Below are positions 15,769-37,465 of a stretch of DNA of 44,066 nt, in pieces. Under the pieces are notes generated by a model, which saw only the letters and a list, made by a program, of their open reading frames with translations, was not told the origin of the DNA and searched no databases. Both the position numbers and the translations under genes were made by a program. Origin of the DNA: a virus. Position 1 is the stretch's first letter. Each line of letters opens with the position of its first letter. The stretch is taken from positions 1 through 44,066 of the IMG/VR virus record IMGVR_UViG_3300049157_000082; one strand, 5' to 3'.

Positions 15769-17454
15769 CTAGAGCTGGACGATCTGCGGGGTGGGCGCGT
15801 CCTCGGCCGGCGCGATGGCCCGGCTGAGTCCGGTCACCAGCGCGACGATGCCGTCGATCCGCTCACGCGCCTTGGCCTTGTCCGGGGCGATGTTCTCGTT
15901 GGCGTCGGTCCGGATCACCGCATTGGACGCCATCCAGCGCAGCACCTTGTTGCCGCCGTGCACCAGGCCATGGCTGACCACCTGGGCCTCGAGGAACTTG
16001 CAGGCTTCCGACAGGCTGCGCGGGCCCTGGCGGACCTCGACCATTTCGAAGCCGTCCGACATCAGCTGGGTCGAGAGCTGGGTCGCGTTCCACGGATCGA
16101 AGCCGATCTCGCTCATCACGAAGCGTTCGCGCAGCGCGTTGATGTCGGCGCGGATCACGTCGTAGTCGACCACGTTGCCCTCGGTCGGCTTGATGAAGCC
16201 TTGCTTGGCCCAGACGTCGTAGGGCACCCGGTCGCGCTTGGCCCGCTGCGTGATCCGCTCCTCGGGCACCCAGAAATACGACAGCACGTACCAGGGCTCG
16301 TCCTGGTCCTCGTCGGGCGGGAAGCTCAGCTCGAGCGCCGAAATGTCGATCTTGCGCGAGAGGTCGAGCCCGCCGTAGCACTTGCGGCCTTCGAGGAAAC
16401 GCGCCAGATCTTCGTGGTTGAGCGCGCCGGCGCAGGCGTCCCAGTCGGTCATCGGCAGCCAGCGCACGGTCTGCTCGGTCCAGATGTCGAGGTGCAGCCG
16501 CTTGAAGGTGTTCTCGTAGGCCGGGATCTGCCGTGCCTTGGCGGCCTGCTTGCGGATGTAGTCGACCGACACGGTCTTGCCCAGCGAAGGGTTCGCGCGC
16601 GCCCACACCGCCGGGTCGCTGATGTCGGCCTCCCGGTCGGCGCCGAACAGCACCGGCAGGAACTCCGGATCCTCGATGATGCCGGCCAGCACCTTCTCCC
16701 CGTAGTCGTCGAACTCGTAGCACAGCGAGTGGATGTCGTCGCCCGCGGTGGTGATCAGGAACTCGAGCGGCTGCTCGCGGGCGCCGGTCGAGGTGTGCAG
16801 CACGTCGTAGAGCGCCCGGCTCTTCGAGGCGTGGATCTCGTCGCCGATCAGGCCGCTGGCGTTCAGGCCGTCCTTCGAGGCGGCCTCCGAGGACAGCACC
16901 TTGTAGACCGATCCGGTCTTGCCGACGACGATCGTCTTCTTGTAGGCCAGCGACTGCCGCGCCAGCTTCGGCGACCGCACCCGCATGGCCTTGGCCGCGT
17001 TGAAGGCGATCGCCGCCTGGTCAGTGTCGTTGGCGAAGGAATAGACCTCAGCGCCCGCTTCGTGGTCGGCGAAGGTCAGCATGAGGCCGACGCCGCCGGC
17101 AAGACCCGTCTTGCCGTTCTTGCGCGGTATCCGCACGTACACGATGCGAAACCGCCGGGTGTCGTCGGGCCGTTTCCAACCGAAGGCCAGCCGGATGCAG
17201 ACCTCCTGCCAGATATCCAGGTTGAACACCTGGCCGACCCAGCGGCCCTTGGTGTGGCGCAGGTAGCGCGGGAAGAAGGCGACCGCCCGTGCCGCCGCCA
17301 GCTCGTCGAAATAGTAACCTTCCGGTCCGCTGCGCTCGGCCCAGGCCGTCAGCGCGGCCGCGTGCTCGCGGGCATGGGCCTCGGCCATGGCGGCGATGGC
17401 CCGGTCGTCGGCTTCCTCAGTGGGTGGTTTCGCGCACGCCGAAGTAATCGTCAT
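15769..17454 (-). CDS. Terminase large subunit
   Basis: The protein has 561 residues from the ATG at 17454 (GGAGG about 12 bases upstream). An ATG at 17388 is an alternative that avoids overlap with the small subunit. The ATPase Walker A is IPRKNGKTGLAGG and Walker B is GLIGDEIH. The nuclease half has GGLDLSRKIDISALEL and GFDPWNATQL with its acidic residues. This is the Terminase_1 type of HK97-like phages. It packages DNA and cuts concatemers with the small subunit and the nearby HNH protein. Confidence 0.95.
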   Translation of the reverse strand: MTITSACAKPPTEEADDRAIAAMAEAHAREHAAALTAWAERSGPEGYYFDELAAARAVAFFPRYLRHTKGRWVGQVFNLDIWQEVCIRLAFGWKRPDDTRRFRIVYVRIPRKNGKTGLAGGVGLMLTFADHEAGAEVYSFANDTDQAAIAFNAAKAMRVRSPKLARQSLAYKKTIVVGKTGSVYKVLSSEAASKDGLNASGLIGDEIHASKSRALYDVLHTSTGAREQPLEFLITTAGDDIHSLCYEFDDYGEKVLAGIIEDPEFLPVLFGADREADISDPAVWARANPSLGKTVSVDYIRKQAAKARQIPAYENTFKRLHLDIWTEQTVRWLPMTDWDACAGALNHEDLARFLEGRKCYGGLDLSRKIDISALELSFPPDEDQDEPWYVLSYFWVPEERITQRAKRDRVPYDVWAKQGFIKPTEGNVVDYDVIRADINALRERFVMSEIGFDPWNATQLSTQLMSDGFEMVEVRQGPRSLSEACKFLEAQVVSHGLVHGGNKVLRWMASNAVIRTDANENIAPDKAKARERIDGIVALVTGLSRAIAPAEDAPTPQIVQL

Positions 17455-17962
17455 CGGTGAAGCGGTCCTCCGGCAGCTGCGGTTTGTCGGGGTCCTCCTG
17501 CTCGGGCCACTGCTCCGCGCCAGGCAGCGCCGGCTGGCTCGCATCGGCCAGGCTGGCGGCGACCCGCGGACGCGCCGCCGGGGTCAGGCCGAACTCCGCT
17601 GCGAGCTGGCGCAGCTCCTTGCGGGCGAACTCGGCGATGCGGACCTCCGGGCGCATGCGCACGATCCCGTCCTTGACGTAGACCTGGCCGTGCTTCTTGA
17701 CCGCGGCCGCCGCGAGGCGCCACTGGTCGTAGGCGCCGCAGAGCGCCTCGAAGGCGGTCAGGTCGATCGAACTCAGGATCCCGAGCTGTTCGAGTTCGCC
17801 GCCGATCCGGTCCCACAGCATCTTGCCGTAGCGGCCGAGGAAGACCGGCGCCTTGGGCGTTCCCGCCGTCCGCGGCCTCGGCTCCTGCTTGTTCAGCGGC
17901 CGCTTGCCGGGATTCCCAGCCAGTTCCTTGACCGCCGTCGGTTTCCGCCGCCTGCCCGCCAC
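17417..17962 (-). CDS. Terminase small subunit, P27 family
   Basis: The 181-residue protein starts at a GTG at 17962 with GAGGTGA 4 bases upstream. The open frame can be read from an ATG at 18010, but the family start is AGRRRKPTAVKELAGNPGKRPLN in pieces, which fits the GTG. P27 features are GNPGKRPL, then VFLGRYGKMLWDRIGGEL, EALCGAYDQW and MRPEVRIAEFARKELRQLAAEFGLTP in pieces. It recognises the packaging site. It overlaps the large subunit start by 38 bp if that gene starts at 17454. Confidence 0.93.
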   Translation of the reverse strand: MAGRRRKPTAVKELAGNPGKRPLNKQEPRPRTAGTPKAPVFLGRYGKMLWDRIGGELEQLGILSSIDLTAFEALCGAYDQWRLAAAAVKKHGQVYVKDGIVRMRPEVRIAEFARKELRQLAAEFGLTPAARPRVAASLADASQPALPGAEQWPEQEDPDKPQLPEDRFTDDDYFGVRETTH

Positions 17963-19376: not shown

Positions 19377-20197
19377 GAGGCGGCCTCCAGGTGGGCATCG
19401 TGCCGGTCGGCCTCGGCCTGGGCCTGGGCCAGCAAGTCTCCGCCGCGGCCGCCCTTGAGCAGCGCCATGGCCCGGGCCGTGATCTTGGCCTCTGTCGGCC
19501 CCTGAGCGTGCACCGTCTTGAGCGCCCACCACATGACCAGCTTGGCATGCGGCCAGGTGAGCGAAAGCTCGTTGGTCGCCCAGCGGTAGAGGTCGCTTTC
19601 CCAGCCGTCGATCTTGGCGTCGCTCCAACCCCGGTCGCGCCAGAACTCCCGCACGCCGCGCCAAGGCAGCGACCAGGGCGGCAGCGCCGCTGCCTTGCGC
19701 GGGCCGTCGGCGGCGCCCTCTGCGCCGGCGGCGGCGGCGGACCGCGCTGGGGTTTCAATAGGGGTTTCTATAGGGGTGGGTGCACCGGGTTCACCCTTTA
19801 GCGCACCAGGTTCACCCTTTCCGACCTCAAATTCACCCTTTGTGGGGTTCTTAAAGGGTGCAGGAGATTCACCCTTTTCCTTGAGCGCCCGGAGCTCCCG
19901 AAAGGTCGGGATCTTGCCGAACAGGCGGGCCGCCCGGTCGTAGTTGAGACGCCAGACCCGGGTCCGGCCGCGCCCGACCTGCTCGGTGGTCTCGACCAGC
20001 ACGCCCAACCTCTGGTAGGCCTTGACGTACTTCTGGACGGTCCGGTCGGTGGTGCCGCACAACAGCGCCGCCTTCTCGACCGAGATGCCGATCTGCTCGC
20101 CGTCGCTGTTGGTCTCGTTGGCATAGACGACGAGCACCATCCTCGACGTCAGGTCGAGGTTGAGCCGCATGACCGGCCCGACCCAGTCCCAGCTCAT
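19373..20197 (-). CDS. Replication initiator-like protein with N-terminal winged helix
   Basis: The protein has 274 residues from the ATG at 20197 (GAGGTG 7 bases upstream, 4-bp overlap with the gene before). Residues 10-95 form a winged helix (LDLTSRMVLVVYANETNSDG, KAALLCGTTDRTVQKYVKAY, LGVLVETTEQVGRGRTRVW). A Pro/Gly/Glu linker with KGE repeats (about residues 107-148) follows, then a helical C-terminal domain. The layout is like lambda O: DNA-binding N-terminus, internal origin, partner-binding C-terminus. No helicase or loader gene is recognised, so host factors are probably recruited. Confidence 0.72.
   Translation of the reverse strand: MSWDWVGPVMRLNLDLTSRMVLVVYANETNSDGEQIGISVEKAALLCGTTDRTVQKYVKAYQRLGVLVETTEQVGRGRTRVWRLNYDRAARLFGKIPTFRELRALKEKGESPAPFKNPTKGEFEVGKGEPGALKGEPGAPTPIETPIETPARSAAAAGAEGAADGPRKAAALPPWSLPWRGVREFWRDRGWSDAKIDGWESDLYRWATNELSLTWPHAKLVMWWALKTVHAQGPTEAKITARAMALLKGGRGGDLLAQAQAEADRHDAHLEAAS
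19790..19877 (-). repeat. Iteron array inside the replication gene (candidate origin)
   Basis: Four direct copies of AAAGGGTGAA (minus strand) lie at 19799-19790, 19820-19811, 19841-19832 and 19877-19868, spaced 21, 21 and 36 bp. An inverted AAAGGGTG copy is at 19853-19860. Next to them are two 12-bp repeats of GGGGTTTCWATA (19749-19772). The preceding codons all end in A although encoding four different residues, which points to selection on the DNA. Confidence 0.75.
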
Positions 20198-20916
20198 GGT
20201 CGCACCTCGCAAAGCAACTGCGCCCGAATCTCTGGGTACTCATCCTCATCTTCCCATTCTGGGGCTGAGGCCAATATTTCCAACACTTCGGCGGCGCAGG
20301 CTCTTGGATTGCAGGATATTTCACTACCGGTGAAACGGACGTTCCGGATGTTGTTTCGCGTGAACGCCCGGTCTCTGGCGCGGTCTCGCCGCGCCTGGGA
20401 TTTAGTACGCTCATGCCAGTCGTGGCCATCGCATTCGATCGCCAAGAGCGCCTTGTCGGATGTACTCTTGATGCAGAAATCTGATCTGTAGTTGAGGAAT
20501 TTCCATTGCGGGCTAATCTGGATCCCAGTCATTTGATTGATGGCCGGGAATAGACTGTCCGCAAGCAGTCGTTCTATAGGACTTTCACATAAGTTGATGA
20601 TTGTGCCGAGGGCTTGCAGGTAGCAAATTCTTTCGATTAGTTTTCGCGTGTACTTACTACTAGTCTTTTCAAGCCAGGTTTTCAAAGTTATTGGGTTTAC
20701 GGGCTGACCGACGTAGTAAAGGCCGGCTATTCCCCCTATTATCATCGCGTGTTCCTCGGAATATGGCGCTACTCCCCGCTCGTCTGTTATTGGAAAGCTG
20801 ATGGGTTGTTCGGCGTCGCGGCCGTAGCCGTCGAGCCAGGCGCCCACGACAGCGTCGTCGCTCAGGCGGACGAGCAGCGGCGCGCCATCTGACCTCTGTC
20901 TTCCGACATCTGTCAT
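20194..20916 (-). CDS. DUF559-like PD-(D/E)XK nuclease-type protein
   Basis: The 240-residue protein has SPIERLLADSLF, then DFCIKSTSDKALLAIECDGHDWHE and SQARRDRARDRAF and VRFTGSEI. This is the DUF559 / VSR-like endonuclease pattern, with acidic residues in DFCIK and IECDG. The first 45 residues are GC-rich like the phage, while most of the rest is distinctly AT-richer, a sign of separate origin. The start lies inside a repeat-like stretch (20889-20919). It is 4 bp from the adenine methyltransferase stop. A nuclease role is inferred from the family. Confidence 0.75.
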   Translation of the reverse strand: MTDVGRQRSDGAPLLVRLSDDAVVGAWLDGYGRDAEQPISFPITDERGVAPYSEEHAMIIGGIAGLYYVGQPVNPITLKTWLEKTSSKYTRKLIERICYLQALGTIINLCESPIERLLADSLFPAINQMTGIQISPQWKFLNYRSDFCIKSTSDKALLAIECDGHDWHERTKSQARRDRARDRAFTRNNIRNVRFTGSEISCNPRACAAEVLEILASAPEWEDEDEYPEIRAQLLCEVRP

Positions 20917-20920: not shown

Positions 20921-21562
20921 CTAGGGCCCCCACGCCATCCTGCGCAATTCCGTCGCCTGCCAGTCCCACACGAACCACGCGAAGTTGTGGCGCGGGCCGC
21001 TGTCGCCGGCGCGCCGCTCGGCCCAGTAGGGCCGGCGCAGGCAGACGATCTTGAGCGCCAGCGGCATGATCTCGTAGAGCTCGCGCCAAGTCACCGCGCA
21101 GTCCCACTCGTTGCGCAGGAACATGGCGACCTGGCCGCCGACCGGGCGCATCAGGGCAAGCGCCTTGCAGACGAACTCCCGCGCCAAGAGCCCGCGCTCA
21201 CCATAGGGCGGGTTGGTCACGATCGCGCCGACCTCGCGGCCGCCCGGCGGCTCGCTCGCCCGCAGGAAGTCCAGCTGCACCCAATCGGAGAAGCCGCGGT
21301 CGACCAGGTCGGACGAGACCACGTCGAAGCGCTGGGCCAGCACCCGGGTCATGCGCCCGTCGCCGCAGGCCGGCTCCCAGATCGGCCCCCGCAGGTTGTA
21401 TCTGGCCATCAGCAGGCGGGTCACCCACTCCTCGGTCGAGTAGAAGTCCTTGTCGTTCCGCGCGTGGCCCGACTCGCCGAGCATCGGGTCGGCGCCGCCC
21501 TTGCGCGGGATCGCCAGCGGCGCCGGCGGCAGTGGCTCGAGCCCGGCAAAGAGGTCGCTCAT
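20921..21562 (-). CDS. Phage DNA adenine methyltransferase
   Basis: The 213-residue protein has SAM motif I as EPACGDGRM (about residues 63-71) and catalytic motif IV as NPPYGERG. The order I then IV and the sequence DFYSTEEWVTRLL near the start match N6-adenine methyltransferases found in phages of alphaproteobacteria. It probably protects phage DNA against restriction or marks it for regulation. It could also pair with the neighbouring DUF559-like nuclease. The leader GGAGCGTAGCG before the ATG is shared with the next gene upstream. Confidence 0.88.
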   Translation of the reverse strand: MSDLFAGLEPLPPAPLAIPRKGGADPMLGESGHARNDKDFYSTEEWVTRLLMARYNLRGPIWEPACGDGRMTRVLAQRFDVVSSDLVDRGFSDWVQLDFLRASEPPGGREVGAIVTNPPYGERGLLAREFVCKALALMRPVGGQVAMFLRNEWDCAVTWRELYEIMPLALKIVCLRRPYWAERRAGDSGPRHNFAWFVWDWQATELRRMAWGP

Positions 21563-25598: not shown

Positions 25599-25680
25599 AG
25601 GTTCACCACAGAGGCACAGAGGACGCCGAGGACGAAAAAGTTCCGTTCCTCTGTGACCTCTGTGCCTCTGTGGTGAACCT
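25599..25680. repeat. Palindromic repeat A1 (82 bp, 24-bp perfect arms)
   Basis: The arms at 25599-25622 and 25657-25680 are perfect inverted copies containing TTCACCACAGAGGCACAGAG. They could form a long hairpin. The word is a widespread bacterial intergenic repeat. It lies 12 bp from the 3' end of the tRNA. Confidence 0.9.
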
Positions 25681-25692
25681 GTTGGTTCACGT

Positions 25693-25767
25693 TGGTAGCG
25701 AGGGCGGGACTCGAACCCGCGACCTTCTGGTTATGAGCCAGACGAGCTGCCGCTGCTCCACCTCGCG
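25693..25767 (-). tRNA. tRNA-Met(CAT), initiator-type
   Basis: The gene has 75 nt with an encoded CCA. The anticodon loop is CTCATAA. Acceptor positions 2-7 pair perfectly with 66-71, but C1 faces U72, the mismatch typical of bacterial initiator tRNA. D-stem GAGC/GCTC has the A11:U24 pair of initiators. The anticodon stem is TCTGG/CCAGA, lacking one of the three G:C pairs of E. coli tRNA-fMet; relaxed versions occur in alphaproteobacteria. T-arm is CGGGTTCGAGTCCCG. It begins on the base after the stop of the small HTH gene, so the two are probably co-transcribed. Confidence 0.9.
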
Positions 25768-25938
25768 TCATCGTTTCGTCGCTTTCTTGCGCCGGCGCCG
25801 GGCCTTGGTCGGTTTCTCGATGCGTTGCACCAGCCGGTAAACGGTGGTCCCGGAATGCCCAAGCGACGCGGCGCGCCGCTCGATCGAGATCGTCGCGCCG
25901 TCGCGCAGGCTCGCGCGTTCCAGGGCGCGCGGGGTCAT
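25768..25938 (-). CDS. Small HTH-like protein
   Basis: The 56-residue protein starts at the base right after the exonuclease stop. RRAASLGHSGTTVYRLVQRI (about residues 22-41) looks like a helix-turn-helix, and the C-terminus is a Lys/Arg tail (KARRRRKKATKR). Similar short HTH proteins occur in phage early regions. The stop abuts the tRNA. Confidence 0.6.
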   Translation of the reverse strand: MTPRALERASLRDGATISIERRAASLGHSGTTVYRLVQRIEKPTKARRRRKKATKR

Positions 25939-26514
25939 TTATGCATGCTCCTGTGCTCGAAGTTCAAAGAACACACGCTTGCAAGCCTGTACGTCGACGA
26001 AGGCGTCGTGGGCGCCTTTCAGATCCTCACCGAAGAAGTGATTGATGCATTCTGATAGCCGCGGCCATTTGTATTCGCCTTCGCGGTAGCCCGGGATAGC
26101 GCAAATCGGCGTGGCGGCGTGCATCGTGCAATAGCTCTTGGCGGCTGCAAGATGCTTGTTGATGCCTGGCCTGCGGTTGCGTCTGGCAGCCGTGTCCAAG
26201 ATCGCCAAGTCGAATTCGATGTGATGGGCGACAAATAGCTCGGCACGGGTAGCAAGCGCGACGAAGCACTGCAATGCAAACGCTGGTTTCACACCAACCC
26301 GCGCCGCCAATTCGTCCGTGATTCCATGGATCCGGCTGGCTAAGCCGGGAATTGGAACGCCGGGGTCGACTATCAGGCTGAATTTGTTCCGCTCGATTCC
26401 GTCGTCGTCGGACAGTATAGCCGCGAGTTGGACGAGGTGCGGCTGTGATTCGTGATCAGGAGTCCTATCGAATATAGGCAGCCCCGTTGTCTCCGTGTCG
26501 AAGAATAGGATCAT
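25939..26514 (-). CDS. DEDDh 3'-5' exonuclease (DnaQ-like)
   Basis: The 191-residue protein has Exo I DTETTG (Asp6, Glu8), SRIHGITDE, Exo II HHIEFDLAILD (Asp about 102) and Exo III GAHDAFVDV (His about 169, Asp about 174). This is the DnaQ/epsilon-type exonuclease, acting on 3' DNA or RNA ends. It is distinctly AT-richer than its neighbours and lies with the tRNA and the small HTH gene between two copies of repeat A. The start has AAGGA about 9 bases upstream. Confidence 0.9.
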   Translation of the reverse strand: MILFFDTETTGLPIFDRTPDHESQPHLVQLAAILSDDDGIERNKFSLIVDPGVPIPGLASRIHGITDELAARVGVKPAFALQCFVALATRAELFVAHHIEFDLAILDTAARRNRRPGINKHLAAAKSYCTMHAATPICAIPGYREGEYKWPRLSECINHFFGEDLKGAHDAFVDVQACKRVFFELRAQEHA

Positions 26515-26554
26515 TCCGCCGCATCCTTTAACATCTGAACCTGATATTTTCTTG

Positions 26555-26588
26555 TCCTCGGCGTCCTCTGTGCCTCTGTGGTGAACCT
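26555..26588. repeat. Repeat A3 (half copy)
   Basis: One arm of the A element, containing CTCTGTGCCTCTGTGGTGAA, in the same direction as the right arm of A1 (25657-25680). There is no facing arm. Confidence 0.85.
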
Positions 26589-26594
26589 TGTCGT

Positions 26595-26837
26595 TCATGC
26601 CGCCGTCTCCAGTTCGCGCAGCTCGCAGAAGTCGTTCGGCGCCACCTTGCCGTTGGTGACCCACCAGATCAGCTCGAGCTGCCACTTGCGCGGCAGGCGC
26701 CCGGCCTCCCAGGTCTGCACGGTCTGCTGGTTGATCTGGCGGGTCTCGCCGAACAGCCGCAGGGTGGCGGCGCTGAGGTTCTCGGCCAGCTGCCACTGGG
26801 CGATCTCGCGTTCCCGGCGCCAGGCTTTCAGCTTCAT
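26595..26837 (-). CDS. Cro-like XRE regulator
   Basis: The 80-residue protein is a short HTH: MKLKAWRREREIAQWQLAEN, then RLFGETRQINQQTVQTWEAGRLP in pieces. It is the first gene of the leftward early operon, directly under the operator-promoter at 26928-26957, the place of Cro or an early repressor. It probably binds the 19-bp operators, shared with the XRE proteins at 26987 and 27922. Confidence 0.78.
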   Translation of the reverse strand: MKLKAWRREREIAQWQLAENLSAATLRLFGETRQINQQTVQTWEAGRLPRKWQLELIWWVTNGKVAPNDFCELRELETAA

Positions 26838-26927: not shown

Positions 26928-26957
26928 CGTTAACACCGAAACCGTGTTATCGTCAAG
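26928..26957 (-). promoter_or_regulatory. Leftward early promoter with embedded operator
   Basis: Minus strand: CGC-TTGACG (26956-26951) with TTAACG 17 bases on. The spacer holds the 19-bp operator TAACAC-N7-GTGTTA (26931-26949). Arrangement is the same as at 27864-27892. It would drive the Cro-like gene and the early leftward operon. Confidence 0.75.
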
Positions 26958-27863: not shown

Positions 27864-27892
27864 TTGACCTTAACACGAAAACCGTGTTAAGC
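27864..27892 (+). promoter_or_regulatory. Rightward promoter with embedded operator
   Basis: CGC-TTGACC (27864-27869), 17-base spacer with operator TAACAC-N7-GTGTTA (27871-27889), then TTAAGC. Start of transcription would be near 27899, just ahead of the XRE gene at 27922. Same layout as the leftward promoter. Confidence 0.75.
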
Positions 27893-27921: not shown

Positions 27922-28305
27922 ATGACCGACAATCCCGACCCCATCGACCGCCAAGTCGGCGCCAACCTGCGCGCCCTGCGCATCGAGCGCGGGCTGAGCC
28001 AGACCGATCTCGGCAGGGCGGTCGGCGTCACCTTCCAGCAGATCCAGAAGTACGAGAACAGCGGCAATCGGATCTCGGCCAGCCGGATGTACCACATCGC
28101 GGTGTTCCTCAAGATCTCGCCCATGGCGCTGTTCCGGGGCGTCGAGACGCCGGGCGACGCGCCGGCCCACGACGACCGCCGCACGGTCCGCGCGATCGCC
28201 AGCCTGCGCCGGATCAGCGACCCCAGGGTGCGCGCCAGCACGGCCGCCCTGATCAACGAGCTGGCCAAGCTCGACCAGCACCAAACGGCGGCGGCGGCGA
28301 GATGA
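27922..28305 (+). CDS. XRE-family phage repressor
   Basis: The 127-residue protein has VGANLRALRIERGLSQTDLG, then VTFQQIQKYENSGNRISASR (about residues 12-55), the common alphaproteobacterial XRE pattern. The C-terminal part is helical. An operator lies in its own promoter, so it should be autoregulated. No RecA-cleavage (S24) domain is present, hence induction is probably not by classical LexA-like self-cleavage. It heads the rightward operon that ends with the integrase. Confidence 0.85.
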   Translation: MTDNPDPIDRQVGANLRALRIERGLSQTDLGRAVGVTFQQIQKYENSGNRISASRMYHIAVFLKISPMALFRGVETPGDAPAHDDRRTVRAIASLRRISDPRVRASTAALINELAKLDQHQTAAAAR

Positions 28306-28312
28306 ACAACCG

Positions 28313-28392
28313 GGTTCACCACAGAGGCGCAGAGGACGCCGAGAATAAACCGATGTTGTTCCTCGGTGTCCTCTGCGGCTCTGCGGTGAACC
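28313..28392. repeat. Palindromic repeat A2
   Basis: The arms at 28313-28343 and 28362-28392 match at 28 of 31 positions and contain GGTTCACCACAGAGGCGCAG. It is a diverged full copy of element A, sitting just after the repressor stop. Confidence 0.88.
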
Positions 28393-28422
28393 TTCCTTTC
28401 CCTTCCGAGGTGAGGTAGCGCG

Positions 28423-32998: not shown

Positions 32999-33363
32999 CC
33001 GCCTGGCCCCTCACCATGGACCAGTGCGCCGCCCGGCTGCACGTCAGCCGGCGGAAGCTGCAGGATTTGATCAAGGTTCACGAACACTATAGGCTGGCCG
33101 GCAGGCGCAAGCTGTTCAGCGAGGCGGATTTCAACCGGCTATTGGAGGCCCTGCCGTGTCCTACCGACTGCACCCGCCGGGCACCCGCGGCGGCAACAAG
33201 GTCTTCTACGCCACGTTCAGCGTCGGCGGCCGGCGCCGCGAGGTCAGCACGAAGACGCGAGACCGAGGCCTCGCTGAACGATTTGCGGCGCGCTTCGAAC
33301 GGCTGCTCTACGAACGTGACCTCCTTGGCGCGGGCCCGCCGCGGACGCTCGGCCAAGCCATAG
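32995..33363 (+). CDS. Excisionase-like HTH protein
   Basis: The 122-residue protein starts as ATGA. MDQCAARLHVSRRKLQDLIK, then GRRKLFSEADFNRLLEAL is a MerR/HTH_17-type domain like phage excisionases. After about residue 55 the frame runs 208 bp inside the integrase gene and reads low-complexity Ser/Arg/Ala, so the tail is probably tolerated and not functional. It should direct excision with the integrase. Confidence 0.75.
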   Translation: MTAWPLTMDQCAARLHVSRRKLQDLIKVHEHYRLAGRRKLFSEADFNRLLEALPCPTDCTRRAPAAATRSSTPRSASAAGAARSARRRETEASLNDLRRASNGCSTNVTSLARARRGRSAKP

Positions 33364-34115
33364 AGGCCTATGTCGCCTTCCGCCGGCCGGGCGCCAACGA
33401 CCGCCGCTACCTGGACCTCCTGAAGCGCTGGGCCGGCCGCCGGCCGCTCGCGGAGATCGGCCAAGCCGACTTCGACCGGGCGGCCCAGGCGCTCTACCCG
33501 GGCCGCGCGCCCGAGACCTGGAACCGCCAGGTCTACACGCCCCTTCAGGCCGTGCTCGGCCACGCCGGCGTCACGCTCCGGCTCAGGCGCCCGAGGCAGC
33601 GCCGGCCGCGCAACCGCGCCGTCGAGCGCGCCACCGCCGAGCTGCTGATCGCCACCGCCGGGGACGCGCGGACCGGCGACCCGGAGCTCGCGGCCCTTCT
33701 GGCGGTCCTGTTCTTCACCGGCTGCCGGATCTCCGAGGCGGTCGCGCTGACCTGGGACCGGGTCGACCTGGCCGGCCGGCGGGTCCGCTTCGACCTCGCC
33801 AAGAACGACCGCGACCACTGGCGCCCCCTGCACGATCGCGCCTTCACGGCCCTGGCGGGCCTGCCACGGGGCGGCCGCGTCTTCCGCTGGCGCACGACCT
33901 CGGGCCCGCGCAAGCCGCTCAGCGCCCTCACCCGGCGCCTGGGGGTGCACTTCACGCCGCACATGGCGCGGCACAGCTTCGCGACCTGGCTGGCCGACGC
34001 CGGCGCCGGCCTCAAGGACGTCATGGACGCCGGCGGCTGGAGCGACCACAAGAGCGTGCTGAGGTACACGGGCGGCGATGTCGAGCGGGTGCGGCGGGCC
34101 GTGGATCGGTTGTGA
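33156..34115 (+). CDS. int: Tyrosine-type site-specific integrase
   Basis: The protein has 319 residues from a GTG at 33156 (GGAGG 7 bases upstream). An N-terminal AP2-like part (FYATFSVGGRRREVSTKTR) and a core-binding SAM-like domain precede the catalytic domain: Arg in TGCRISEAVALTWDRVD, Lys in DLAKNDRDHW, HxxR in HMARHSFATWLADAGA, the GGWSD box, and Tyr in VLRYTG. It integrates the phage at a tRNA-Thr gene, given the attP 340 bp downstream. Confidence 0.95.
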   Translation: MSYRLHPPGTRGGNKVFYATFSVGGRRREVSTKTRDRGLAERFAARFERLLYERDLLGAGPPRTLGQAIEAYVAFRRPGANDRRYLDLLKRWAGRRPLAEIGQADFDRAAQALYPGRAPETWNRQVYTPLQAVLGHAGVTLRLRRPRQRRPRNRAVERATAELLIATAGDARTGDPELAALLAVLFFTGCRISEAVALTWDRVDLAGRRVRFDLAKNDRDHWRPLHDRAFTALAGLPRGGRVFRWRTTSGPRKPLSALTRRLGVHFTPHMARHSFATWLADAGAGLKDVMDAGGWSDHKSVLRYTGGDVERVRRAVDRL

Positions 34116-36135: not shown

Positions 36136-36774
36136 ATGTATCGTTACCTCATTTTGGTGCTGGCTTCGGTTTTCTTTTCACATCTTGCGAACGCTCAAAC
36201 CGGCCCCTACGGCGAGGTGCGTGGCGGCGTTGCGTTTCTTGACGATGCCGACCTGGATGACGGCAGTGGCATCGATATTGTCTCGACTTTCGATGCCGGC
36301 TATTTGATCGCGGGGGCCGGCGGCTATGCCCATGGCAGCGGGTTCCGGGGCGAACTGGAGTTGGCCTATCGCGAGAACGGGAACGACGAGCTTGAATTTC
36401 GGTTGCCCGGCCCGGACGTGACATTCGATGCCGAGGGTGATACGTCGGCTTTCACAGCCATGGCTAACGGCTATTATGATATCGATATCGGCGTGCCAGC
36501 ACTTCGACCTTATGTCGGCTTCGGGGTTGGATTGGCGGTGGTCGATACCGAGCTGTCCGTACAAGGGATCAAACTCGTTGACGACAGCGACACGGTGTTT
36601 GCCTACCAAGCCCTGGCCGGAGCCGCCTTTCACATCACGCCCAATATCGCGACGACGGTTGGCTACGCCTACCTCGCGACCACAGACCCCAAGTTCAAGG
36701 TCGAGGGCGGCGGTTCGGTCGATGCCGAATACGCCAGTCACAACGTCATGGTCGGACTTCGGTATACTTTTTGA
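36136..36774 (+). CDS. Outer-membrane beta-barrel protein (Lom/OmpA-like)
   Basis: The 212-residue protein has a signal peptide (MYRYLILVLASVFFSHLANA), then TGPYGEVRGGVAFLDDADLD, RPYVGFGVGLAVVD, TTVGYAYLATTDPKF and the terminal GLRYTF with a C-terminal Phe, all typical of eight-strand barrels. GGAGG lies 4-8 bases before the ATG. It is AT-richer and opposite in strand to its neighbours. Like lambda Lom, it should be made by the lysogen and change the cell surface. Confidence 0.85.
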   Translation: MYRYLILVLASVFFSHLANAQTGPYGEVRGGVAFLDDADLDDGSGIDIVSTFDAGYLIAGAGGYAHGSGFRGELELAYRENGNDELEFRLPGPDVTFDAEGDTSAFTAMANGYYDIDIGVPALRPYVGFGVGLAVVDTELSVQGIKLVDDSDTVFAYQALAGAAFHITPNIATTVGYAYLATTDPKFKVEGGGSVDAEYASHNVMVGLRYTF

Positions 36775-36862
36775 TCCCGGCATGATGCCTACGGCGTTCG
36801 TGAGAGCGACCGCCGTAGGCGCTTGGGATGTCCGTTTCGGTGGTGATCCGGTCGAGGTGAGA

Positions 36863-37465
36863 ATGACGAAGATCTTCGGAATCGGGCTTTCGAAGACAGG
36901 CACGACGAGCCTGTGTCACGCTTTGCGGATCCTCGGCTATTCGACCGTCGATTTCCCGCGCACCATCGCGGCGATCCGCAAGCACGACGCGGCGACGGAC
37001 ACATCGGTATCTGTCCAGTTCGAGCGTCTCGACCGTTTGTACCCAGGCAGCAAGTTCATCTACACGATCCGCGACCTGGAGGCCTGGCTGCGATCCTGCG
37101 AACGCTACTGGGAGCTCAACCTGCGGACCATCGAGCGGCAGGCGACCGTGATCGAGGTGTTCACCAAGCTCTACGGCTCGAACCTCTTCGAGCGCCGCCG
37201 CTTTGCGGAAGCCTACGTCCGGCACGAGCGCCGTGTGCTCGATTACTTCGCTGATCGTCCGCACGATCTCCAGATACTCGATATCTGTGGCAACCCCGAC
37301 TGGTCGGACCTCTGCGCGTTCCTCGATGACCCGCACCCGGAGGTAGGCTTCCCGCGGAGCAACACCTTCCGGCAGGCGGTCTGCAGGGCCCGGCGCCAGA
37401 GGATTTGGAAGGCGGTCAGGCCGGTGGTGCCCAAGTTCATCCGGCCCCTGGTCAAGCCGTCATAG
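36863..37465 (+). CDS. Sulfotransferase-like protein
   Basis: The 200-residue protein has FGIGLSKTGTTSLCHALRIL (residues 5-24), with the 5'-phosphosulfate-binding loop of PAPS-dependent sulfotransferases. FIYTIRDLEAWLRSCERYW is the second phosphate-binding segment (RD..W..S). It probably adds sulfate to a host polysaccharide or lipid. GAGGTGAG precedes the ATG. Its stop codon directly abuts the facing stop of the fibre gene. Confidence 0.87.
   Translation: MTKIFGIGLSKTGTTSLCHALRILGYSTVDFPRTIAAIRKHDAATDTSVSVQFERLDRLYPGSKFIYTIRDLEAWLRSCERYWELNLRTIERQATVIEVFTKLYGSNLFERRRFAEAYVRHERRVLDYFADRPHDLQILDICGNPDWSDLCAFLDDPHPEVGFPRSNTFRQAVCRARRQRIWKAVRPVVPKFIRPLVKPS

What the first reader, a model, noticed from the sequence alone, without database searches (positions are those of the whole stretch)
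25693..25767. Phage-borne initiator-type tRNA-fMet
Phage tRNAs for Met are usually elongators. Here the C1xU72 mismatch, A11:U24 pair and encoded CCA point to an initiator. It could boost initiation during late gene expression or resist a host nuclease that cuts the host initiator.
Basis: partly seen in the sequence, partly recalled or inferred. Interest (0 to 1): 0.72.

Follow-up and report, generated by a model that had tools for sequence, protein, structure and literature searches.

The report
Phage-carried start tRNA (tRNA-fMet)
This temperate bacterial virus carries its own copy of the special transfer RNA that starts every bacterial protein, and the copy has a swapped base pair that sampled Proteobacteria lack but many other phages share, which may help the virus keep protein synthesis starting during infection.

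Summary
A complete tRNA(CAU) gene lies at exactly 25693-25767, on the minus strand, in a 44-kb IMG/VR record with a 127-bp exact end repeat (complete temperate phage genome). It carries the formylation determinants C1xU72, G2:C71, C3:G70 and A11:U24, plus A73 and an encoded CCA, and resembles host initiators (about 82%) more than elongators. In fetched viral loci, related CAU tRNAs have a mismatched 1:72 pair in 101/135 cases, against 9/308 non-CAU phage tRNAs. The initiator reading is therefore supported.

The U29:A41 motif gives 91 hits in viral contigs but 42 in 257 Gb of bacterial genomes (largely Patescibacteria and prophages).

Phage-borne tRNA-fMet genes are already annotated, for example in Sinorhizobium phiLM21-like prophages. 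The kind is known; the phage-enriched pair-swapped variant seems undescribed. Most likely it is a working extra initiator. Whether it counters anticodon-loop nucleases such as VapC is plausible but untested. tRNA-dependent lysogeny found no support.

The parts
25693..25767 (-). initiator-type tRNA(CAU), 75 nt including encoded CCA; C1xU72, G2:C71, C3:G70, A11:U24, U29:A41, G30:C40, G31:C39, 7-nt D-loop
   Evidence: ARAGORN, Rfam RF00005 63.5 bits, direct reading, comparison
25768..25938 (-). 56-aa ORF whose TGA stop abuts nucleotide 1 of the tRNA; probably co-transcribed; no family match
   Evidence: the ORF listing; Pfam none
25599..25680 (.). long imperfect palindrome (34-nt arms) 12-13 nt downstream of the tRNA 3' end; possible terminator, processing barrier or mobile repeat
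   Evidence: fold -63.9 kcal/mol, z -9.9; repeats
25939..26796 (-). exonuclease (RNase_T / DNA polymerase exonuclease subunit-like), next annotated gene upstream of the tRNA; true start uncertain
   Evidence: PHROG 192 E 8e-34; PF00929
23758..24765 (-). DUF2303 protein downstream of the tRNA, early-type region
   Evidence: PF10065 E 1e-46; phrog_210
33156..34115 (+). tyrosine integrase (temperate phage)
   Evidence: phrog_1 E 4e-43; PF00589
27922..28305 (+). HTH repressor-type regulator
   Evidence: PF01381; phrog_8/3/4
15769..17544 (-). terminase large subunit
   Evidence: phrog_9 E 7e-166

Best explanation
The gene encodes a functional phage-borne initiator tRNA (tRNA-fMet). Inferred steps: it is transcribed within the minus-strand early-type operon. 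RNase P cuts directly after the stop codon of the 56-aa ORF, and the CCA is already encoded. Host MetRS charges it (CAU anticodon, A73) and host Fmt formylates it (unpaired 1:72, G2:C71, C3:G70, A11:U24). IF2 and the 30S P-site then use it for initiation. It adds to, or backs up, the host initiator pool during infection. The U:A pair at 29:41 keeps a weak pair where alphaproteobacterial hosts have A:U, so the ribosome probably still accepts it. Shown: the gene, its sequence features and its relatives. Not shown: expression, charging, formylation, benefit.
For: Intact cloverleaf with all acceptor and D-stem formylation determinants as listed in PMC7949028. About 61-64 of 77 aligned positions match host initiators, against 50 of 77 to 58 of 81 for elongator-type CAU tRNAs; the difference lies in the 5' half and anticodon arm. 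BLAST against E. coli genomes matches tRNA-Met genes at 84% in 5,375 of 5,426, median 4 places per genome, the number expected for initiator genes. In initiator-like phage CAU tRNAs the 1:72 pair is mismatched in 101/135 and G:C/C:G in 3/135; in non-CAU tRNAs of the same loci it is mismatched in 9/308. The mismatch is kept as many different base combinations (C:A, T:T, A:A, C:T, A:C), which points to selection for an unpaired end. Initiator-like tRNAs recur in diverse phages and in alphaproteobacterial prophages, where a complete separate host initiator coexists in the five genomes read.
Against: The 3GC motif is incomplete (U29:A41). The 3' third (T-arm, U72) looks as much like an elongator as an initiator (23-25/33 against 27-29/33-35). 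No promoter was found, and no expression data exist. The closest relatives by terminase or DUF2303 lack a tRNA in the stretches held, so the gene is dispensable in the wider lineage.
Confidence: 0.72

Rival explanations
1. It is an initiator whose altered anticodon stem (U29:A41) escapes a host anticodon-loop nuclease (VapC type) or another factor that recognises the host initiator stem-loop, so initiation continues when the host initiator is cut. (A special case of the best explanation, not exclusive with it.)
For: VapCs of Shigella and Salmonella cut tRNA-fMet between A38 and C39 (PMC4105405). BoVapC1, from the alphaproteobacterium Bosea, cleaves E. coli tRNA-fMet and extra metZWV copies partly rescue growth (PMC8522696). 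The phage stem differs from the host at 29:41 in both alpha (A:U) and gamma/beta (G:C) hosts, and U29:A41 recurs in Xanthomonas, Rhodobacter and Caulobacter phages. A phage anti-tRNase role has been proposed generally (PMC10264068).
Against: Loop CUCAUAA and the cut site A38/C39 are unchanged. PMC10264068 reports that phages generally avoid encoding tRNA-fMet where the nuclease cuts it. Other phage initiators keep G:C or A:U at 29:41. No nuclease test exists, and the host is unknown.
Confidence: 0.3
2. tRNA-dependent lysogeny: the phage integrates into and destroys the host initiator gene and supplies its own copy so that lysogens survive.
For: The phage is temperate with a tyrosine integrase, and this mechanism exists in actinobacteriophages (PMC10865867).
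Against: No host-initiator segment beyond chance length lies beside the integrase (9 nt upstream, 78/200 shuffles as good; 7 nt downstream), although true cores can be only 8-10 bp. The tRNA lies 7.4 kb from the integrase. In five alphaproteobacterial genomes carrying a phage-type copy, a complete host initiator is present, though those are other phages. phiLM21-like prophages also do not show this behaviour (PMC12429752).
Confidence: 0.08
3. It is an elongator tRNA-Met or an Ile2 (lysidine) tRNA with a chance acceptor mismatch.
For: CAU anticodon; elongator-like T-arm and 3' end.
Against: A11:U24, C1xU72, GG/CC next to the loop and the initiator-type 5' half; poorer match to elongators overall. 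Mismatch at 1:72 is rare in non-CAU phage tRNAs (9/308).
Confidence: 0.07
4. It is a captured host gene without benefit, decaying.
For: Two-thirds 3GC and an unusual 1:72 pair could be read as drift; relatives without a tRNA exist.
Against: All stems pair and CCA is intact; acceptor and T-stem pairs change in compensating fashion across relatives with the same stem-loop. The variant stem is shared by many phages.
Confidence: 0.1

Closest known systems
tRNA-fMet(CAU) genes in Sinorhizobium meliloti phiLM21-like prophages (PMC12429752)
   Same: single initiator-type tRNA in a temperate phage with a tyrosine integrase
   Different: their sequences were not compared here; the host tRNA is rebuilt on integration there, whereas the attachment site here is unknown
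Initiator-like tRNAs beside the terminase genes of Xanthomonas phage Elanor, Pseudomonas phage PaMx74, Stenotrophomonas phage vB_Sm_QDWS359 and Janthinobacterium phage Donnerlittchen
   Same: 80-88% identity; initiator 5' half and unpaired or weak 1:72; Elanor also has U29:A41
   Different: different phage family and neighbours (ribonucleotide reductase/terminase); not a shared locus
Host chromosomal tRNA-fMet of Alphaproteobacteria and Gammaproteobacteria
   Same: formylation determinants, CAU loop CUCAUAA, encoded CCA
   Different: hosts have A29:U41 or G29:C41, mostly a 9-nt D-loop and C1xA72 where read in full; the phage has U29:A41, a 7-nt D-loop and C1xU72

Membership tests
bacterial initiator tRNA (tRNA-fMet) | mismatch or weak pair at 1:72 | tested here: met
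   C1xU72
bacterial initiator tRNA (tRNA-fMet) | A11:U24 (purine:pyrimidine) | tested here: met
   D-stem GAGC/GCUC
bacterial initiator tRNA (tRNA-fMet) | G2:C71 and C3:G70 | tested here: met
   acceptor CGCGAGG/CCUCGCU
bacterial initiator tRNA (tRNA-fMet) | three G:C pairs 29:41, 30:40, 31:39 | tested here: inconclusive
   two of three; 29:41 is U:A. Alphaproteobacterial host initiators also lack G:C there (A:U), so strict 3GC is not a necessary feature
bacterial initiator tRNA (tRNA-fMet) | CAU anticodon in loop CUCAUAA, A73 | tested here: met
bacterial initiator tRNA (tRNA-fMet) | formylation and P-site initiation | not testable with these tools
   needs biochemistry
tRNA-dependent lysogeny | attB inside the host gene of the same isotype, not rebuilt on integration | tested here: inconclusive
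   no attP-initiator match beyond chance; attB unknown
phage anti-tRNase tRNA | resistance to the nuclease that cuts the host tRNA | not testable with these tools
   anticodon loop unchanged; stem pair 29:41 differs from hosts

The most novel reading that the evidence does not exclude
Phages of many lineages share a specially altered initiator tRNA with a swapped 29:41 pair that the ribosome accepts but a host defence aimed at the initiator stem-loop does not recognise. This would be a general counter-defence that protects translation initiation.
Probability: 0.2. Interest if true: 0.8.

Novelty: new variant of a known kind. Interest (0 to 1): 0.42.

Why it matters
Phage tRNAs are usually discussed as codon supplements, which cannot explain an initiator. 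A recurring phage initiator whose stem differs from the sampled proteobacterial hosts gives a clean test of whether phages defend or boost translation initiation. It also shows which departures from the 3GC rule nature may tolerate.

Tried and rejected
Exact search for the first 47 bases in IMG/VR: no hit. Relatives by DUF2303 and terminase: few, and none with a tRNA in the stretches held. attP scan for initiator segments beside the integrase: chance level; a single hit GGTTGAAATCC at 33126 lies in apparent coding sequence just before the integrase and is one of 12 where 13 are expected. Host assignment: the terminase matches mostly Firmicute-type phages at under 50% and the tail protein matches Roseobacter phages at about 31%, so the host stays open; Alphaproteobacteria is only a guess. 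The sampled genomes for the 29:41 survey include one centre per class chosen because it held the phage-type copy, so those two are not independent. The literature search covers open-licence papers only.

Full report
What is there. The window is an IMG/VR virus record of 44,066 bases whose first and last 127 bases are identical, the mark of a complete assembled genome. It codes for terminase, portal, head protease, major head protein and tail proteins, a tyrosine integrase and a repressor-type regulator, so it is a temperate tailed phage. Its only tRNA lies at 25693-25767 on the minus strand and scores 63.5 bits against Rfam tRNA.

Is it an initiator? The determinants of formylation listed in PMC7949028 are present: an unpaired 1:72 (here C:U), G2:C71, C3:G70, A11:U24. 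A73 and CCA follow. It aligns with host initiators of five alphaproteobacteria and one Nitrosomonadales MAG at 61-64 of 77 columns, and with elongator-type CAU tRNAs at 50 of 77 to 58 of 81, the difference lying in the 5' half and anticodon arm. In E. coli genomes the match is to tRNA-Met genes at 84% with a median of four places per genome. As a control, initiator-like CAU tRNAs from fetched viral loci have a mismatched 1:72 in 101 of 135 distinct sequences, while non-CAU tRNAs of the same loci do so in 9 of 308. The D-stem type was part of the search pattern, so only the 1:72 comparison is independent. Many different mismatches occur, which suggests selection for an open end rather than inheritance of one mismatch. 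CCA alone is weak evidence: 208 of 308 non-CAU tRNAs carry it too; PMC5143459 reports that initiators encode it most often among the ordinary classes.

The anticodon stem is UCUGG/CCAGA, so 29:41 is U:A and the 3GC motif is reduced to two pairs. In a sample of 190 alphaproteobacterial genomes, 103 had a match to a pattern neutral at 29:41; every listed copy had A29:U41 except the phage-type copy in G005. In 94 genomes of the class of G007, 81 matched; all listed copies had G29:C41 except one A:U (G410) and the phage-type copy in G007. G005 and G007 were chosen as centres because they hold such copies, so the independent samples contain none. The pattern fixed to U29:A41 gave 91 stretches in viral contigs and 42 in the 257-Gb bacterial genome collection. 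About half of those 42 are Patescibacteria, where it is the only matching copy in the genomes searched and so probably their own. Several others are alphaproteobacterial contigs; in L105, L116 and L143 the tRNA lies within about 2-4 kb of a terminase gene, in L127 near a tail gene, in L123 near phage replication and repressor genes, so these are prophages. A complete host initiator with A29:U41 exists in each of these five genomes. The same U29:A41 appears in Xanthomonas phage Elanor, Rhodobacter phage RcXuper and Caulobacter phages. Other phage initiators have G:C or A:U there, so the variant is phage-enriched, not universal.

Context and likely working. The tRNA starts directly after the TGA of a 56-aa ORF, downstream of an exonuclease gene and upstream of DUF2303 genes, a non-structural, early-type region. 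No promoter was found. The simplest reading is co-transcription and excision by RNase P. A 34-nt-arm palindrome lies 12-13 nt beyond the CCA and may shield or end the transcript. Host enzymes would charge and formylate the tRNA. The 29:41 pair is contacted by the ribosome mainly from the minor groove (own knowledge); swapping A:U for U:A changes little there, so acceptance is likely in alphaproteobacterial hosts. This is inference.

Why carry it? Extra supply, or a backup when the host initiator is destroyed. VapC toxins of several bacteria cut tRNA-fMet at A38/C39 (PMC4105405); a VapC from the alphaproteobacterium Bosea cuts E. coli tRNA-fMet, and extra initiator genes partly rescue growth (PMC8522696). 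That shows dosage alone could help. Whether U29:A41 adds resistance is unknown; the loop and cut site are unchanged, and PMC10264068 found that phages tend to avoid encoding tRNA-fMet where a host VapC targets it. tRNA-dependent lysogeny (PMC10865867) was considered: no match beyond chance between the integrase flanks and host initiators, and the host gene is intact in the five lysogens with related tRNAs, though these are other phages.

Novelty. Phage-borne tRNA-fMet is known (PMC12429752; annotated in QDWS359). The variant with the swapped stem pair and its enrichment in phages was not found described in the open-licence papers searched; that search is limited. The finding is real and of moderate interest.

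Noticed in passing
25599-25680, 26548-26597, 28303-28407: Dispersed palindromic repeat (GGTTCACCACAGAGGCACAGAGG...) in three places of this phage, giving spurious 'HHRGTE' ORFs; its core has only 4 exact hits in IMG/VR.
   Followed up: partly
L096 2501-2575; L097 2501-2576: Xanthomonas phage Elanor and Pseudomonas phage PaMx74 carry initiator-like tRNAs not annotated in their records, beside the terminase gene; PMC11236537 quotes that Mesyanzhinovviridae (Elanor's family) lack tRNAs.
   Followed up: partly
26930-26949 and 27870-27889: Two near-identical palindromes TTAACACxGAAACCGTGTTA upstream of two HTH-type genes, likely operators of the lysogeny switch.
   Followed up: no
36428-37465: Sulfotransferase-domain protein (PF17784, E 2e-27) in a phage genome.
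   Followed up: no
20194-20916 and 20921-21562: MTES_1575-type endonuclease-like gene next to a DNA methyltransferase, possibly a restriction-modification pair.
   Followed up: no
L104, L109, L115, L131, L138, L142, L119: Patescibacteria genomes have U29:A41 in their only matching initiator copy, so these bacteria depart from the 3GC rule natively.
   Followed up: partly
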